Shown here: piece after piece, positions 6,671-49,521 of the stretch
How positions within the stretch are numbered: the stretch's first letter is position 1
Layout: every line of letters begins with the position of its first letter
IMG/VR virus record: IMGVR_UViG_3300043256_000370
Coordinates: 1 to 49,521 of that record
DNA from: a virus
Length of the DNA: 49,521 nucleotides
Reading direction: 5' to 3' (one strand)
Made by a program: the position numbers and the translations under genes
The notes under the pieces: model-generated
Databases searched by the model: none
What the model was told of the DNA's origin: nothing
Seen by the model: the letters and a program-made list of their open reading frames with translations, nothing else

Positions 6671-6997
6671 ATGATAGATGTTTTAAGGGTCGGTGAGACG
6701 GGTAAGAGGCATATGATAGGGGTAGGCTTCGATATGGTCAATTTCACGTCCCTGGACCTGGTCTATACCAAGCCTGATGGTGAAACGCTATCAGTCACGG
6801 CAGCCATTGGCGGCTCGACCGAGACAATCGGCGAAAATAGCTACGCGGCAAATCACTGGGTTTATTATGATTGGGATGTCGGTAACGTTGATCAGTCCGG
6901 AACCTGGAAAGTGGATTTTACTTATACCAACACGACCAGCAATCCTGATGATACTTATAAGAATACGGAAGTATCAACTTTTGAAGTAGCTGATTAA
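6671..6997 (+). CDS. Ig-like beta-sandwich accessory protein, 108 aa
   Basis: Last gene of the fibre block, preceded by GGAG a few bases upstream. The start at 6671 is preferred because the ATG at 6666 is followed immediately by a stop. The protein begins with a short MIDVLRVGETG segment and then a beta-strand pattern with LDLVYTKPDGETLSV and GTWKVDFTYTN, which resembles small Ig-like proteins often found beside phage tail-fibre or baseplate genes (from memory, not searched). It may decorate the fibre or assist its assembly. The gene is followed by a GC-rich direct repeat and hairpins. Confidence 0.7.
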   Translation: MIDVLRVGETGKRHMIGVGFDMVNFTSLDLVYTKPDGETLSVTAAIGGSTETIGENSYAANHWVYYDWDVGNVDQSGTWKVDFTYTNTTSNPDDTYKNTEVSTFEVAD

Positions 6998-7036
6998 GGT
7001 GCCCGCGGCCCTACGCTACGCTCAAGGTGCCCGCGG
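6996..7036 (+). repeat. 13-base direct repeat just after the fibre block
   Basis: The sequence AAGGTGCCCGCGG occurs at 6996-7008 (touching the stop codon) and again at 7024-7036, separated by the short repetitive CTACGCTACGCTC. The stretch is much more GC-rich than its surroundings and is not coding in any convincing frame. Confidence 0.8.
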
Positions 7037-7095
7037 GGCGGCTTAGGCCTCTTCCCTTGTCAGCGGGACGCTGCCTGCGGCAAGAGAAAAGAAAG

Positions 7096-7141
7096 AGGAT
7101 CCTTTTTTATGGCGCTACGCTGAAGAATAAAAAAGGATCCT
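7096..7141 (+). terminator. 15-bp perfect inverted repeat, probable bidirectional terminator-like hairpin
   Basis: Arms 7096-7110 and 7127-7141 are perfectly complementary over 15 bases, with a 16-base loop. Each arm holds a GGATCC and a T or A run, so either strand's transcript folds into a stem whose own arms supply the A/U tracts. It lies about 100 bases past the end of the fibre operon. The right arm ends where a candidate -35 box begins. Confidence 0.55.
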
Positions 7142-7169
7142 TGACACTCATAAGATCAGGCAGTAAGGT
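7141..7169 (+). promoter_or_regulatory. Sigma70-like promoter (TTGACA-N17-TAAGGT)
   Basis: A perfect -35 (TTGACA, 7141-7146) and a fair -10 (TAAGGT, 7164-7169) are spaced by 17 bases. The expected start near 7176 falls at the first base of a hairpin, and no gene follows before the terminator at 7246-7275. Confidence 0.5.
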
Positions 7170-7176
7170 CGGTGAC

Positions 7177-7275
7177 GTACAAAGAAGTCCTTCTCTGTAC
7201 AATCTTGATATTCAGTTGAATATCTCCCTATATTTTGAAACTTCAAGAGCTGGATCTGATCCGGCTCTTTTTTTT
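7177..7275 (+). ncRNA. Candidate small RNA of about 100 nt with three hairpins
   Basis: Downstream of the promoter above there are three stem-loops in a row and no credible reading frame. The first is 7177-7186 with 7191-7200 (10 bp, one mismatch, 4-base loop). The second is 7207-7214 with 7217-7224 (8 bp perfect). The third is an intrinsic terminator, 7246-7253 with 7261-7268, followed by a T run. This is the outline of a free-standing small RNA. The alternative is an untranslated tail of a leading transcript. No known RNA family was recognised. Confidence 0.45.
7246..7275 (+). terminator. Rho-independent terminator
   Basis: AGAGCTGG pairs with CCGGCTCT (one G-U pair), extendable through GATC, and is followed by seven or more T on the + strand. 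It closes rightward transcription ahead of the convergent gene ending at 7274. Confidence 0.85.
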
Positions 7276-7618
7276 AATCAAGATATTCGATTTTATGTCC
7301 GGATTTATTCCATGCGTGACCAGGCATTAAATTTGAGTATCTCAGATTTGATTTGTCTTTATCGCGAAACCTCACTTCACCGGGAGGAAGCGTGCCAGTC
7401 ATATATAATATAGCCAGATGTGTTGCCATGTAGGTTTTTCCTTTGAGATAAATATGAGTATATCCCTTGTCATTTGGCCAGCCAATCGGAAACGGCTTGC
7501 ATGGGCGATTTCGATGTTTGATGCGATGGAAAGTACCTTTGGCCGGATCATAGATAAGAAGAGTTTTTAATTCTTCCTGAGTTAATTCTTTATGATGTTG
7601 TGTCATTGGGTGTGTCAT
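7274..7618 (-). CDS. Degenerate HNH-homing-endonuclease-like protein, 114 aa
   Basis: The layout follows small phage HNH proteins: an N-terminal helix (LTQEELKTLLIYDPAKGTFHR), a beta hairpin with GWPNDKGYTHIYLKGKTYMATHLAILYMTGTLPPGE, and a C-terminal NLRYSNL that corresponds to the usual N-x-x-x-N-L of HNH_3-type proteins. The usual D-H-I-(N/D)-G-D catalytic block is replaced by RFRDKDKSN, so the metal-binding His is missing and nuclease activity is doubtful. It is the only leftward gene among rightward ones here and lies between the fibre block and the non-coding region, as expected of an inserted mobile gene. The start may be 7618 or 7606; neither has a clear ribosome-binding site. Confidence 0.6.
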   Translation of the reverse strand: MTHPMTQHHKELTQEELKTLLIYDPAKGTFHRIKHRNRPCKPFPIGWPNDKGYTHIYLKGKTYMATHLAILYMTGTLPPGEVRFRDKDKSNLRYSNLMPGHAWNKSGHKIEYLD

Positions 7619-7738: not shown

Positions 7739-7991
7739 TGTAGAGGACAAAAATATTTTGTAGAAGACAGTGTCCTACACATGAATCCTTTAAAAACAAT
7801 TTGTTATATGTATAGCTTTTGGCTTTTAGAGGAGAAGAAGACAAATCAGGAAAAAGTCTCCTACAAAATAAAAAACAAATTCCCAAATCACCTCTTCTCT
7901 TCTAATTCCAACAAGGTTGGTAGGGAACCCCTTATAAACATTCAAAAAAACTGTAGGACACTGTCTTCTACAAGCCGTGTTGTCCTCTACA
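7739..7991. repeat. Bipartite perfect inverted repeat (about 40 + 40 bases, 172 apart)
   Basis: The left arm has a 12-mer at 7739-7750 (TGTAGAGGACAA) and a 21-mer at 7759-7779. The right arm has the exact reverse complement of the 21-mer at 7952-7972 and of the 12-mer at 7980-7991. Each 21-mer is itself nearly palindromic (TGTAG at one end, CTACA at the other, 8 of 10 pairs matching around the centre), the form of a dimeric protein-binding site. Spacer lengths between the two parts differ by only one or two bases (8 versus 7). Confidence 0.85.
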
Positions 7992-8148
7992 GCGTTGTTT
8001 TTAAACGATTTTTTCATTTCTCTTATATATAGGGTCAAAATGTTACCAGTAAGATTTCTTGATTTTTTCTTCTTCTATATTCTACCTATATATAAGGGGG
8101 AAAGGCTATCCCCTTGTGGACGTTCGGCTTTCTGGAATAAAATAGCCC

Positions 8149-8177
8149 TTGACTAGCTGCTATTTCTCCTCTAAAGT
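8149..8177 (+). promoter_or_regulatory. Sigma70-like promoter for the clamp gene (TTGACT-N17-TAAAGT)
   Basis: The -35 TTGACT (8149-8154) and -10 TAAAGT (8172-8177) are 17 bases apart and 75 bases upstream of the clamp ATG. The spacer contains TCTCCTC, which resembles half of the repeated sites at 7739-7991, so binding there could overlap the promoter. Confidence 0.6.
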
Positions 8178-8252
8178 CCAATACACAATTGAGAAATTGG
8201 CGCAATCCTGCGGTTTTTCTCTTCTACAAGCAAAAATTACGGAGATTTAAAG

Positions 8253-9005
8253 ATGTTAAAACAAATATTGAATGTTAATGCTCTGCTGTTTCACTGTGCT
8301 GCGACTTATGCTGCCAGTACGGAAGAAACCAGATATTATTTAAATGGTGTTTTCTGCGAGCCGCATGAGGATGGCGGGGTGATCTTAACGGCAACCGATG
8401 GTCATAGGCTGTTAAGCTTTCGTGATCCGGTCGGCTGGATCGATGAGGCTTATCTTGAAAAGCCGGATGAGAAAGGAATGATCATCGATTATGGTGATAA
8501 GTTTGCCCTGGCTAAGGCGTGCAAGGTCACAACAACAAAAGCGCGGCGGATATTGAAAAAACCAGCGGATCAGACGCAAGGTATTCGGCTGATTGTCGAG
8601 CGCAATAGCGATACCGGACATTGTTTTGCCAAGGTGGTGATCATGGAAATATATAATCTTCCTGCGATCCATGATGGTGATTTGCTGGATGATATATATA
8701 TTCACCCGCAACCGGTGATCATTGATGGAACTTATCCGGATTGGCGGCGGAGCGTGCCGAGCGGGACAATAATGGAAGGGCCCGGGGCAAGTTATAGCGG
8801 GAAATATATTGGTGAATTCGGCACGCTGGCTAATATCATGCCAAGCGAGGCGGGATTTTATGATACTCATACCAGTTTTATGACCATTGATAATCGTGAT
8901 CCAAGCGGTCCGGCGTTGTGCAAGCTCGGTCAATGGGATTGTGTTGCGGTGATCATGCCGATGCGCGGCCCGGGCGGCTGGCCGTCTCTTCCTGCATGGT
9001 ATTAG
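8253..9005 (+). CDS. DnaN-like DNA sliding clamp, shortened (250 aa)
   Basis: Beta clamps encircle DNA and tether the polymerase. TRYYLNGV at residues 27-34 followed by ILTATDGHRL (44-53) matches the second domain of bacterial DnaN closely (VRYYLNGM and VATDGHRL in E. coli). A YPDWRRSVP at about 160 matches the usual YPDYRRVLP, and VIMPMR (233-238) matches the C-terminal VVMPMR. The protein has about 250 residues instead of about 366, and sequence upstream of the domain-II motif is only about 25 residues, so domain I appears to be absent and the last domain is short. GGAG stands upstream of ATG 8253. The gene is a single unit between promoter 8149 and terminator 9093. It may cooperate with the PrimPol at 39557 or recruit host polymerase. 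Confidence 0.8.
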   Translation: MLKQILNVNALLFHCAATYAASTEETRYYLNGVFCEPHEDGGVILTATDGHRLLSFRDPVGWIDEAYLEKPDEKGMIIDYGDKFALAKACKVTTTKARRILKKPADQTQGIRLIVERNSDTGHCFAKVVIMEIYNLPAIHDGDLLDDIYIHPQPVIIDGTYPDWRRSVPSGTIMEGPGASYSGKYIGEFGTLANIMPSEAGFYDTHTSFMTIDNRDPSGPALCKLGQWDCVAVIMPMRGPGGWPSLPAWY

Positions 9006-9092
9006 GGAGCGGGTTGGGGATCAGGATCGTGATCTTTGTAGCGTGCTGGATAATTATATTATCGATGTAAAATGAATATCTCTAAACTGGAT

Positions 9093-9121
9093 GAGCTGGC
9101 AGAAATGCCGGCTCTTTTTTT
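9093..9121 (+). terminator. Rho-independent terminator after the clamp gene
   Basis: A 9-bp stem (9093-9101 with 9106-9114, one G-U) is closed by a GAAA tetraloop and followed by seven T. Confidence 0.9.
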
Positions 9122-9129
9122 GCCTGGGC

Positions 9130-9158
9130 TTGACTTTGTTTGAATAAGCGGCTATACA
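9130..9158 (+). promoter_or_regulatory. Sigma70-like promoter (TTGACT-N17-TATACA)
   Basis: TTGACT at 9130-9135 and TATACA at 9153-9158, 17 bases apart, stand just after the clamp terminator and 37 bases before the ATG at 9195. Confidence 0.7.
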
Positions 9159-9194
9159 GTGGCTACAAGATCAATTAAATAGGAGATATTACAA

Positions 9195-9374
9195 ATGATT
9201 AAGCAAACACATAGGATAACGTTGAATATTATATTCAATGGTCCTATTAATAAAACTAATGCTTTGAGAGAGTTCAAAGATAGTATTTATGGACTTCATT
9301 ATACAAGTTTTGGATATTTGAAAGGTGCACCAGCAAAATATCCGGAGACGTTCAGAATAGGGGCGGCAAAATGA
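9195..9374 (+). CDS. Small hypothetical protein, 59 aa
   Basis: The start is well supported: AGGAG at 9181 and ATG at 9195. The protein is basic, has an N-terminal beta-like stretch (HRITLNIIFNGPI) and ends with RIGAAK. The stop overlaps the ATG of the next gene (ATGA at 9371). I do not recognise a family. It is the first gene of a short unit of four small genes transcribed from the promoter at 9130. Confidence 0.7.
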   Translation: MIKQTHRITLNIIFNGPINKTNALREFKDSIYGLHYTSFGYLKGAPAKYPETFRIGAAK

Positions 9375-9841
9375 GTATGGATAAAACATATATAAATGAT
9401 GCAGTGGCGCTCGCAGCTGGTTGGCGCGGGACTAGTGTCACGTATATCGAGGCGCGGTTATATGCGCAAGTCGGTGGCAAAATTGGAATAGTATGGTGTG
9501 AAATGATTGCTGATGCTTTCGGCACTGAACCGGACTTAAAGCCTCAGCGGTGGCGCGTTGGCCTTTGGCTTGATTGCGGCTGTTGTGGTATGGATTTTCA
9601 GATTTGGTATGGATATAAAGATCAGGATCAAGATGCTGGCTATGGTATTTGTTACGGATGCCAAGACGATGCAGCACAACGAAATTTGAATGAAGAAAAC
9701 CAAATGATTGCAACATTGCGAAGCGGCCTTAATGATGATAATAAAATCAAGTTTGATGCGATGGACCGCGAGTTTCAATTAGGGCTCGTTATGAAAGCCA
9801 TTGAAGACGAAATGCTTGTTTTTAAATGTGTGAGGTATTGA
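9371..9841 (+). CDS. Cys-rich hypothetical protein, 156 aa
   Basis: Not recognised. Residues about 75-105 contain CGCCGMDFQIWYGYKD followed by CYGC, i.e. two pairs of closely spaced cysteines about 20 residues apart, which fits a small zinc ribbon. The N-terminal 65 residues look alpha/beta, and the C-terminal 50 residues are helical and acidic (NLNEENQMIATLRSGLNDD). Translation is coupled to the previous gene. A zinc-binding or DNA/protein-binding role is inference. Confidence 0.7.
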   Translation: MSMDKTYINDAVALAAGWRGTSVTYIEARLYAQVGGKIGIVWCEMIADAFGTEPDLKPQRWRVGLWLDCGCCGMDFQIWYGYKDQDQDAGYGICYGCQDDAAQRNLNEENQMIATLRSGLNDDNKIKFDAMDREFQLGLVMKAIEDEMLVFKCVRY

Positions 9842-9842
9842 T

Positions 9843-10052
9843 ATGACTATGATAGAAAAGGGCTTATGCTGGATAGCTGGATTAATTGGCATTGCTTGCC
9901 TTGGCAGCTGGATCATGGGCGAAATTACATTTCATACATTCATGGAATTTTATTTCAAGCCGATATGGATATCAATTGCCGTATTGTTAATTGTATTTGG
10001 GTTCGCTCAATTGGTGGCAATGCTTAGGGATTTGAGGGGGCCAAGAAAATGA
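9843..10052 (+). CDS. Small membrane protein with two TM segments, 69 aa
   Basis: Two hydrophobic helices are visible: residues about 10-27 (WIAGLIGIACLGSWIMG) and about 40-60 (WISIAVLLIVFGFAQLVAML), followed by a basic tail (RDLRGPRK), which would place the C-terminus in the cytoplasm. No family was recognised. Its TGA overlaps the ATG of the next gene. It could be a holin-like or superinfection-exclusion protein, but nothing in the sequence decides this. Confidence 0.7.
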   Translation: MTMIEKGLCWIAGLIGIACLGSWIMGEITFHTFMEFYFKPIWISIAVLLIVFGFAQLVAMLRDLRGPRK

Positions 10053-10225
10053 GATATTCATTATTAGATGGCGGCAAGCCCCGCGCAAAGGCTCATTATG
10101 TAGTGGATTTATGCCACATCATTGCAGCGATAACGGGTTGTAGCTATGGCAAGCTTGAACAGGAATATTATAAGCATGGCGACGATTTTAACCACCGGGG
10201 CTATTCAATCAAGTGCGAACCATAA
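10049..10225 (+). CDS. Small hypothetical protein, 58 aa
   Basis: ATG 10049 overlaps the stop of the membrane-protein gene (ATGA). The product starts MRYSLLDGGKPRAKAHYVVD and contains two Cys and several His and Tyr residues. I do not recognise it. It is the last gene before the strong terminator at 10247-10274, which supports it as the end of this unit. Confidence 0.6.
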   Translation: MRYSLLDGGKPRAKAHYVVDLCHIIAAITGCSYGKLEQEYYKHGDDFNHRGYSIKCEP

Positions 10226-10246
10226 ACCAGTATATATAATCGGATC

Positions 10247-10274
10247 AAGGGCTCTCAATTGAGGGCCCTTTTTT
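10247..10274 (+). terminator. Rho-independent terminator
   Basis: AAGGGCTCTCAA (10247-10258) pairs with TTGAGGGCCCTT (10259-10270), with one G-U pair, followed by T6. Confidence 0.9.
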
Positions 10275-10282
10275 CATGGTGC

Positions 10283-10310
10283 TTGACTATTGCCTATATA
10301 TAGCTATAAT
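10283..10310 (+). promoter_or_regulatory. Strong sigma70-like promoter (TTGACT-N16-TATAAT)
   Basis: TTGACT at 10283-10288 and a perfect TATAAT at 10305-10310, 16 bases apart, lie immediately after the terminator and 37 bases before ATG 10347. Confidence 0.8.
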
Positions 10311-10346
10311 AGGGCCACAACATTAACAAATAGAGAGAGATATATA

Positions 10347-10475
10347 ATGAGTTACTCAAACGAAATACATCAAAGAATAGCAGATCAGTTAATAGCATTG
10401 CTTAGTGATCCGAGCGCAGAGCATGGCGAATATAAAAAGCGGTGGGCTCGTATCGGAGCAAGGTTATTTAACTGA
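10347..10475 (+). CDS. Small hypothetical protein, 42 aa
   Basis: ATG 10347 is preceded by an AGAGAGA purine tract at the right distance and follows a strong promoter; the longer frame from 10290 would start inside the promoter and is rejected. The product is MSYSNEIHQRIADQLIALLS followed by a basic tail (EYKKRWARIGARLF), probably one amphipathic helix plus a short basic helix. Family and role are unknown; it is an early small phage protein by its position. Confidence 0.65.
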   Translation: MSYSNEIHQRIADQLIALLSDPSAEHGEYKKRWARIGARLFN

Positions 10476-10575
10476 ACAAACAGCACAGGATTATAGATAT
10501 ATGTTCTGCAATGAGCATACGATATTCTTTGAAGATCGAGACACTAAGGAATATTATCTAGTACCAAGACTGTAA
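10423..10575 (+). CDS. Possible overlapping small gene, 50 aa
   Basis: This frame overlaps the end of the 42-aa gene by 53 bases. It reads MANIKSGGLVSEQG, then DYRYMFCNEHTIFFEDRD and ends in YYLVPRL. It is supported by its position between the strong promoter and the terminator at 10596, which would otherwise follow 120 bases of empty transcript, and by a protein-like composition. The true start could also be ATG 10501 (24 aa). No clear ribosome-binding site was seen, so confidence is limited. Confidence 0.4.
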   Translation: MANIKSGGLVSEQGYLTEQTAQDYRYMFCNEHTIFFEDRDTKEYYLVPRL

Positions 10576-10595
10576 ATAACATCACATAGCGTTTT

Positions 10596-10620
10596 AAAGG
10601 GCCTTAGCGGGCCCTTTTTT
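10596..10620 (+). terminator. Rho-independent terminator
   Basis: AAAGGGCC (10596-10603) pairs with GGCCCTTT (10610-10617), loop of six bases, and T run continuing to 10620. Confidence 0.85.
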
Positions 10621-11193
10621 ATGTCCGGTCCGGTGGTGCCGGATTGTTGGCCTTTGCTCATTGGTGGTAGTTTAGAGCTTGATTAATGCTATGATTATTG
10701 TTATATCGTACGGCGGGCCCGTCTCGATTGCGTACATTACCAGCCAGTAACATATTAGATCAAGCTGGATTGTATCAAGCCCTATGTATAAGCCCTGAGC
10801 AGGGCTCAAACAGAGAACAACATCATCCAGTCAACATGAAATACAACGTATGGTTATAAGCCATTGATATCATTGGCCATAATATTCGCATAATATTTAT
10901 TATGGAAAACTTTTGTGCGTTTGGGTTGGGCGAGCGTCCCCCTGGGCAGCGCCCTTGACGGGCCCCGGCCGCGCATTTTTCACTCAATTTTCACATGTAG
11001 CTCTAAACTAGCCCCTTGACAATTTCCGCGCAAAATTTTAAACTTATTCACGCACTCCGGTTTCGATATAATAATGTATCTGACAGCATTGTTTTTTCAC
11101 CGCCGGTCTGCGAGCTCCCGCCCTAAAATGCTAGGAGTTGCGCCATTCTGAAGGTTTCGAAATAGGGATGCGCATTTTATTTAGGAAAAAAAT
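10621..11193. other. 570-base non-coding region before the virion operon
   Basis: No gene is supported on either strand. It contains a weak promoter-like pair (TTGATT 10679-10684, TATATC 10702-10707, spacing 17), a 6-bp hairpin (AGCCCT 10791-10796 with AGGGCT 10801-10806), a GC-rich block at about 10928-10976 standing out from AT-rich flanks, and the operon promoter at 11016. Packaging sites often lie next to the terminase genes, so a pac or cos site here is possible but not identified. Confidence 0.6.
11016..11044 (+). promoter_or_regulatory. Sigma70-like promoter for the virion operon (TTGACA-N17-TAAACT)
   Basis: A perfect -35 (11016-11021) and a good -10 (11039-11044) are 17 bases apart. 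The ATG of the first virion gene is 150 bases downstream, leaving a leader of about 140 bases with no gene. Confidence 0.7.
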
Positions 11194-11637
11194 ATGCCGA
11201 CTAAAAAGAAGCCCAAAGCCCCAGAAGTTGAAGCAACGCCCCAGGTGAAAGCCACGTTAGGGACGGATCCGGCTGTTGTGTTGGGGCCGCAGATTGTAAA
11301 AAAGTTTGATGACTTTGATCGATCGATGGATATTGATCTTAATGGGGAGGTTGACAATGAATTTTTGGTAGCACAGATTGAGAACAAGCTTCATTTGGCT
11401 TTACAGTATATGGGTCCGGATAAGATGCAGGACGCCAATCTTAATACGCTGGTCAAGTTTTTTGGTATTTTGCTTGATCGCCGCCAATTACTGAAGGGTG
11501 AGCCTACGCAGATCGTGACCAATACTGACCGCCGGGCTTTGAATGATCTTTTGCCGGCCATTCTTGCGGAGGCTGAACGTCGCGGGATGACGGTGCCGTT
11601 GATTGAGGGTGATATGGAGGTTGTGAGCAATGGCTGA
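11194..11637 (+). CDS. Putative terminase small subunit, 147 aa
   Basis: The small subunit binds the packaging site and feeds DNA to the large subunit. The call rests on position (first gene of the operon, one gene before TerL) and on its form: a basic Lys/Pro-rich tail at the N-terminus, a helical core (residues about 60-105, IENKLHLALQYMGPDKM and LVKFFGILLDRRQLLKGEPTQI), and an acidic end. The sequence LDRRQLLKGEPT resembles a motif of several small terminase-like proteins as I remember them. No helix-turn-helix is certain. The purine-rich GGAAAAAAAT precedes the ATG. It overlaps the next gene by 8 bases. Confidence 0.5.
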   Translation: MPTKKKPKAPEVEATPQVKATLGTDPAVVLGPQIVKKFDDFDRSMDIDLNGEVDNEFLVAQIENKLHLALQYMGPDKMQDANLNTLVKFFGILLDRRQLLKGEPTQIVTNTDRRALNDLLPAILAEAERRGMTVPLIEGDMEVVSNG

Positions 11638-49230: not shown

Positions 49231-49419
49231 ATGGACAATGTTGACAAAAACGGACCCTGGAAAGCATATGAAATCAAAGGCCGAAAACGGATACCTCTTG
49301 ATTGTCACCTTGACCCGACAACCAGAATTGTGGCAGTATTCATCCCGAAAGTAACGGCACGTAAAAAACTTGTAATTTATATTGAATATGGAGAAAAAAA
49401 TGACCCGAAAACCAAGTAA
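49231..49419 (+). CDS. Small hypothetical protein, 62 aa
   Basis: The frame is open from ATG 49114, but that codon lies within the operator/promoter area, so ATG 49231 (AGAAG upstream) is preferred; the 101-aa form cannot be excluded. The product reads MDNVDKNGPWKAYEIKGRKR, then TTRIVAVFIPKVTARKKLVIYIEYGEKNDPKTK, a small basic beta-rich protein. It overlaps the 52-aa gene that crosses the contig join. It is the first rightward early gene; function unknown. Confidence 0.6.
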   Translation: MDNVDKNGPWKAYEIKGRKRIPLDCHLDPTTRIVAVFIPKVTARKKLVIYIEYGEKNDPKTK

Positions 49420-49521
49420 GGGCAAGCGCCTGGTCGGCCGCGACGGTGACGGAAGATTTTGTACGCATCAACATGTTGAAGATGATCCCGATCATACTGT
49501 AATGCACCAATATGACAGTAA
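49395..49521. repeat. Terminal direct repeat, right copy
   Basis: Exact copy of 1-127. The gene that starts at 49400 continues across the join and ends at 164 in window numbering. Confidence 0.95.
49400..49521 (+). CDS. Start of the same 52-aa gene (partial, right end)
   Basis: This is the second copy of the gene at 6-164, cut by the contig end. It overlaps the stop codon of the preceding gene (49417-49419), and a GGAG ribosome-binding site lies at about 49389-49392. Confidence 0.75.
   Translation, partial: MTRKPSKGKRLVGRDGDGRFCTHQHVEDDPDHTVMHQYDS

What the first reader, a model, noticed from the sequence alone, without database searches (positions are those of the whole stretch)
7141..7275. 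Candidate stand-alone small RNA: promoter, three hairpins, terminator, no gene
TTGACA-N17-TAAGGT predicts a start near 7176, the first base of a 10-bp hairpin (7177-7200). A perfect 8-bp hairpin (7207-7224) and a U-tailed terminator (7246-7275) follow, about 100 nt in all with no credible ORF. It lies between the fibre block and the inverted-repeat region. Phage small RNAs can act as decoys or regulators.
Basis: partly seen in the sequence, partly recalled or inferred. Interest (0 to 1): 0.65.

Follow-up and report, generated by a model that had tools for sequence, protein, structure and literature searches.

The report
Phage promoter–hairpins–terminator unit, no gene
A short stretch of an uncultured phage genome has its own promoter and stop signal but no protein gene, so it probably makes a ~100-letter RNA; it lies opposite the tail end of a damaged nuclease gene, but no relative carries it, so what the RNA does is unproven.

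Summary
At 7141-7275 (+) lie TTGACA-N17-TAAGGT, two short hairpins (9 pairs interrupted by one A·C mismatch; 7 pairs; not 10 and 8), an 11-pair terminator with U8, and no ORF of 20 aa. The -10 box alone is weak, but the promoter fits a class used by this phage: all six CTTGAC sites in its 7-11 kb noncoding DNA are on the + strand (0.37 expected, P about 3e-6). A matrix built from the four neighbouring promoters ranks this one 7th of about 99,000 positions. The terminator is one of only four strong + strand terminators found in 49.5 kb. A ~100-nt independent transcript is therefore likely. HNH transcripts reaching the probable minus terminator (7141-7096) would be antisense to the whole RNA, so an OOP-like cis-antisense or boundary role is my first guess. 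The dyads fold as well or better on the minus strand; no homologue exists except one identical contig; trans targets and Rfam resemblances fail controls. Verdict: a plausible candidate phage sRNA of a known kind, function unproven.

The parts
7140..7169 (+). Promoter CTTGACA-N17-TAAGGT; predicted transcript start about 7175-7177
   Evidence: one of 6 + strand CTTGAC sites in 7-11 kb noncoding DNA, 0.37 expected; rank 7 of ~99,000 in a matrix built without it
7177..7200 (+). Hairpin 1 / near-perfect DNA dyad GTACAAAGAA-GTCC-TTCTCTGTAC; 9 pairs with A-C mismatch on +, 10 pairs on the minus strand
   Evidence: no second copy in window with up to 3 mismatches
7207..7224 (+). Hairpin 2 / DNA dyad GATATTC-AGTT-GAATATC, 7 pairs
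7225..7244 (+). Unpaired linker (UCCCUAUAUUUUGAAACUUC), the only long single-stranded part
   Evidence: target search (not significant once structure or the whole genome is considered)
7245..7275 (+). Intrinsic terminator, 11 pairs, U8; also the first strong + terminator after the tail genes
   Evidence: shares GAGCTGG...CCGGCTCTTTTTTT with the terminator at 9093-9121
7096..7141 (.). Perfect 15-bp inverted repeat, 16-nt spacer; followed on the minus strand by CTTTCTTTTCTCTT, so a probable terminator for leftward (HNH) transcripts
7274..7618 (-). Convergent HNH_3 protein, 114 aa; truncated and without the VDH residues of its relatives; its mRNA 3' UTR would be antisense to the small unit

Best explanation
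7140-7275 is an independent rightward transcription unit that makes a ~100-nt non-coding RNA. It is one of a series of promoter-to-terminator units in the 7-11 kb block, and it sits in the convergent junction between the tail genes (rightward) and a degenerate HNH gene (leftward). Shown by sequence: promoter-class and terminator-class membership, no ORF, convergent layout. Inferred: that it is transcribed. Inferred and weaker: how it acts. Its most likely action is local. The terminator closes rightward transcripts before they enter the HNH gene, and the short RNA pairs in cis with the complementary HNH 3' UTR, as lambda OOP RNA does with the 3' end of cII, or its promoter interferes with leftward transcription.
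For: CTTGAC sites: 6 on + and 0 on - in 2,067 noncoding bases at 7-11 kb, 0.37 expected, P 2.6e-6, and 4e-5 for the five others alone. Each of the neighbouring units at 8148, 9129 and 10282 runs from such a promoter to a strong terminator. A leave-one-out promoter matrix ranks 7140 7th of ~99,000. The whole window has only four strong + terminators by the scan used, this being one, and it shares both stem halves with the clamp-unit terminator. No ORF of 20 aa within the unit. Transcript fold z -5.1. The HNH stop codon lies in the U-tract, and a leftward terminator-like stem with a U-rich tail lies just beyond the unit at 7141-7096, so any HNH mRNA ending there contains the full complement of the RNA.
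Against: The -10 box is poor (3 of 6). No expression data. No independent homologue, so no covariation. Hairpin 1 is weaker as + RNA than as - RNA (-7.7 against -11.5 kcal/mol). The antisense overlap touches only two bases of the HNH stop codon, not the rest of its reading frame. The HNH protein itself looks decayed.
Confidence: 0.45

Rival explanations
1. It is only the 3' UTR and terminator of the tail-gene transcript. The TTGACA is a chance or dead promoter and no separate RNA starts here; a stable 3' fragment may still accumulate.
For: It is the first strong + terminator after the + genes ending at 6997; -10 box only 3 of 6; GC-rich hairpin-forming sequence fills 7000-7090.
Against: The promoter belongs to a locally enriched class on the right strand, with the right spacing and a terminator about 100 nt downstream.
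Confidence: 0.25
2. A gene-less remnant of a moron-like cassette: promoter and terminator remain after the gene between them was lost. The two dyads are DNA operators of the promoter (the first lies at about +1 to +25), not RNA elements.
For: Neighbouring units have the same layout with genes inside; the dyads are strand-symmetric and fold at least as well on the minus strand; terminator resembles the clamp-unit terminator; the HNH neighbour is truncated.
Against: No trace of a lost reading frame; dyad 1 has no second copy at other promoters.
Confidence: 0.15
3. A trans-acting sRNA whose unpaired linker binds mRNAs, for example the leader of the late operon (11149-11170) or host messages through CUCCC.
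For: The linker pairs with the gene-11194 leader at -18.9 kcal/mol, reached by 7 of 300 shuffled linkers against the 71 gene starts. Weak Rfam match to alphaproteobacterial MmgR/suhB, 24.4 bits.
Against: Genome-wide, 16 of 120 shuffled linkers do as well as the best site. With folding included, 68 of 200 shuffles match the best target. The MmgR score is far below the cut-off of 41, and unrelated families score nearly the same; another terminator of the phage gets 27.8 bits for sroB.
Confidence: 0.1

Closest known systems
Lambda OOP RNA (general knowledge; reviewed in PMC12197685)
   Same: Short phage RNA with its own promoter and terminator, antisense to the 3' end of a convergent gene's transcript, in a region that may be near replication functions
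   Different: OOP overlaps the cII reading frame (general knowledge); here only the 3' UTR and two bases of the stop codon overlap. The target is a degenerate HNH gene, not a lysogeny switch. No sequence relation found
Phage-encoded trans-acting sRNAs such as lambda PreS and VP882 VpdS (PMC12197685)
   Same: Phage-encoded small RNA outside the protein genes
   Different: No significant target found here; chaperone binding untested; host unknown
Rfam RF00519 suhB/MmgR
   Same: Short hairpin, unpaired stretch containing CCCU, terminator hairpin
   Different: 24.4 bits against a gathering score of 41; sequence outside the terminator scarcely matches
Moron-type phage transcription units (general knowledge)
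   Same: Own promoter and terminator between neighbouring gene blocks
   Different: No protein gene inside

Membership tests
Rfam RF00519 suhB/MmgR | Covariance score at or above gathering score (41 bits) | tested here: not met
   24.4 bits
Any described Rfam family | Match at gathering threshold | tested here: not met
   0 matches in the whole window
OOP-type cis-antisense RNA | Own promoter and terminator, short transcript | tested here: met
   (by sequence only)
OOP-type cis-antisense RNA | Overlaps the 3' part of the target reading frame | tested here: not met
   Overlap is 2 bases of the HNH stop codon, otherwise 3' UTR only
OOP-type cis-antisense RNA | RNase III-dependent decay of the target | not testable with these tools
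   needs experiment
Independent phage sRNA gene | Mapped 5' and 3' ends of a discrete transcript | not testable with these tools
   no expression data
Independent phage sRNA gene | Structure conserved in relatives with compensating changes | tested here: inconclusive
   only one other copy, 100% identical; none in 60 other loci of distant relatives
HEARO / IscB-associated RNA | Rfam match, next to a full-length IscB | tested here: not met
   no Rfam match; neighbour is a 114-aa HNH_3 protein
tRNA or tmRNA | ARAGORN match | tested here: not met

The most novel reading that the evidence does not exclude
A new phage small-RNA gene, restricted to one phage lineage, that controls the convergent HNH gene or the late operon by antisense pairing.
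Probability: 0.25. Interest if true: 0.45.

Novelty: new member of a known kind. Interest (0 to 1): 0.27.

Why it matters
If transcribed, it would be a small RNA gene in a group of uncultured phages (SU10-like portal) that has no close named relative in the collections searched. The useful by-product is a promoter motif (CTTGAC-N17/18-TA) with paired terminators that predicts the transcription units of this phage and can be tested by one 5'-end mapping experiment. Phage small RNAs as a kind are already known.

Tried and rejected
Rfam: no match at threshold; sub-threshold matches (MmgR, L20 leader, snoR117, BjrC1505) appear driven by the terminator and composition, since another terminator of the phage does as well. 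Sequence homologues: none in named phages or plasmids beyond short chance matches, and none in the records of portal relatives except the identical contig. Viral-contig scans with the terminator, the neighbouring tail gene and the clamp gene all gave only that contig. Synteny: portal relatives at 58-67% identity carry no detectable copy of the tail-HNH-clamp region. A covariance model built from the single sequence found nothing outside the window. The same architecture (promoter followed by a strong terminator within 400 nt) was not found in the stretches of six related records examined. Trans-target prediction: fails the stricter controls. Upstream similarity of the small unit to the clamp 3' UTR outside the terminator: 156 of 1000 shuffles as good. 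Host: four MAG contigs carry portal relatives, titled Alphaproteobacteria, Rhodospirillales, Gammaproteobacteria and candidate division TA06; these may be binning errors, so the host stays unknown.

Full report
What the window is. The window is an IMG/VR virus record of 49,521 bases whose first and last 127 bases are identical, so it is probably a complete genome. It has an SU10-like portal. The nearest named phages share only about 22-25% identity in terminase or portal. Rightward genes end at 6997; a leftward HNH gene lies at 7274-7618; the next rightward gene, a sliding-clamp-like protein, starts at 8253.

Checking the observation. The sequence reads as stated. Three details change. The -10 hexamer TAAGGT matches only three consensus positions. 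Hairpin 1 has nine pairs with an A-C mismatch on the + strand, while the complementary strand forms all ten. Hairpin 2 has seven pairs. The terminator is strong. The whole 100-nt transcript folds better than all 200 shuffles. The part without the terminator is in the best 1.3% of genome windows by z-score, but its reverse complement is slightly better still, so the hairpins alone do not tell which strand matters, or whether the symmetry serves DNA binding.

Promoter class. The best new evidence is the promoter context. In the 2,067 noncoding bases between 6998 and 11193 the word CTTGAC occurs six times on the + strand and never on the minus strand; 0.37 are expected on one strand (P 2.6e-6; without the site in question, five others, P 4e-5). 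Five of the six have a TA-type -10 at 17-18 bases. Three of the other units run from such a promoter to a strong terminator: 8148 to 9121 (clamp-like gene), 9129 to 10276, and 10282 to 10620. The fourth, at 11015, precedes the gene block beginning at 11194. A matrix from those four promoters, built without the site in question, ranks 7140 seventh of about 99,000 positions. By the scan used, the window has four strong terminators on the + strand, all in this block. The one at 7245 shares GAGCTGG...CCGGCTCTTTTTTT with the one at 9093. Within 7141-7275 there is no ORF of 20 aa. I conclude that this is probably a real short transcription unit.

The missed neighbour. The HNH stop codon (7274-7276, minus) overlaps the terminator's U-tract. 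Leftward of it, the perfect 15-bp inverted repeat 7096-7141 is followed on the minus strand by CTTTCTTTTCTCTT, a likely leftward terminator. A leftward HNH transcript ending there would carry the complete antisense of the small unit. The HNH protein is 114 aa against about 160-168 in the two relatives aligned; it lacks their C-terminal part and has VRF where they have VDH, so it is probably not an active nuclease.

Relatives. Only one other record contains the region, identical over at least 14.7 kb. Portal relatives at 58-67% identity and below show no copy, and a covariance model finds none in 60 loci.

Function. The linker's pairing with the leader of the late operon looked promising against the gene starts (7 of 300 shuffles). 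It failed genome-wide (16 of 120 shuffles) and with folding (68 of 200). Rfam gives nothing at threshold, and its sub-threshold matches are no better than at another terminator of the same phage. The geometry favours a local role: closing rightward transcription at a convergent junction, and cis-antisense pairing or promoter interference with the HNH transcript. Lambda OOP RNA is the nearest functional analogue (PMC12197685), but overlap with a reading frame, a feature of OOP, is not met.

Verdict. Observation confirmed with corrections; interpretation partly supported. A candidate phage small RNA, a known kind of thing, without homologues and without proven function.

Noticed in passing
7739-7991: Inverted arrays of TGTAGARGACA-type sites, including a 22-bp perfect inverted pair (7758-7779 / 7952-7973), just upstream of the clamp-like gene; 12 matches with up to one mismatch in the window against 5.2 expected. 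Possible origin or repressor-binding region.
   Followed up: partly
7274-7618: HNH_3 protein truncated at its C-terminus, with VDH changed to VRF and the nearby AHR changed to ATH; probably catalytically dead.
   Followed up: partly
8148-11044: Serial units each with a CTTGAC-N17/18-TA promoter, several closed by strong + strand terminators (9093, 10247, 10596).
   Followed up: yes
10282-10620: Second short unit: near-consensus promoter TTGACT-N16-TATAAT, 42- and 56-aa ORFs at most, strong terminator; then about 570 bases without a convincing gene before 11194.
   Followed up: no
1-127 and 49395-49521: Identical 127-bp ends; the record is probably a complete circularised genome.
   Followed up: no
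7000-7090: GC-rich (68%) patch with repeated AAGGTGCCCGCGG directly after the last tail gene, in an otherwise 47% GC genome.
   Followed up: no
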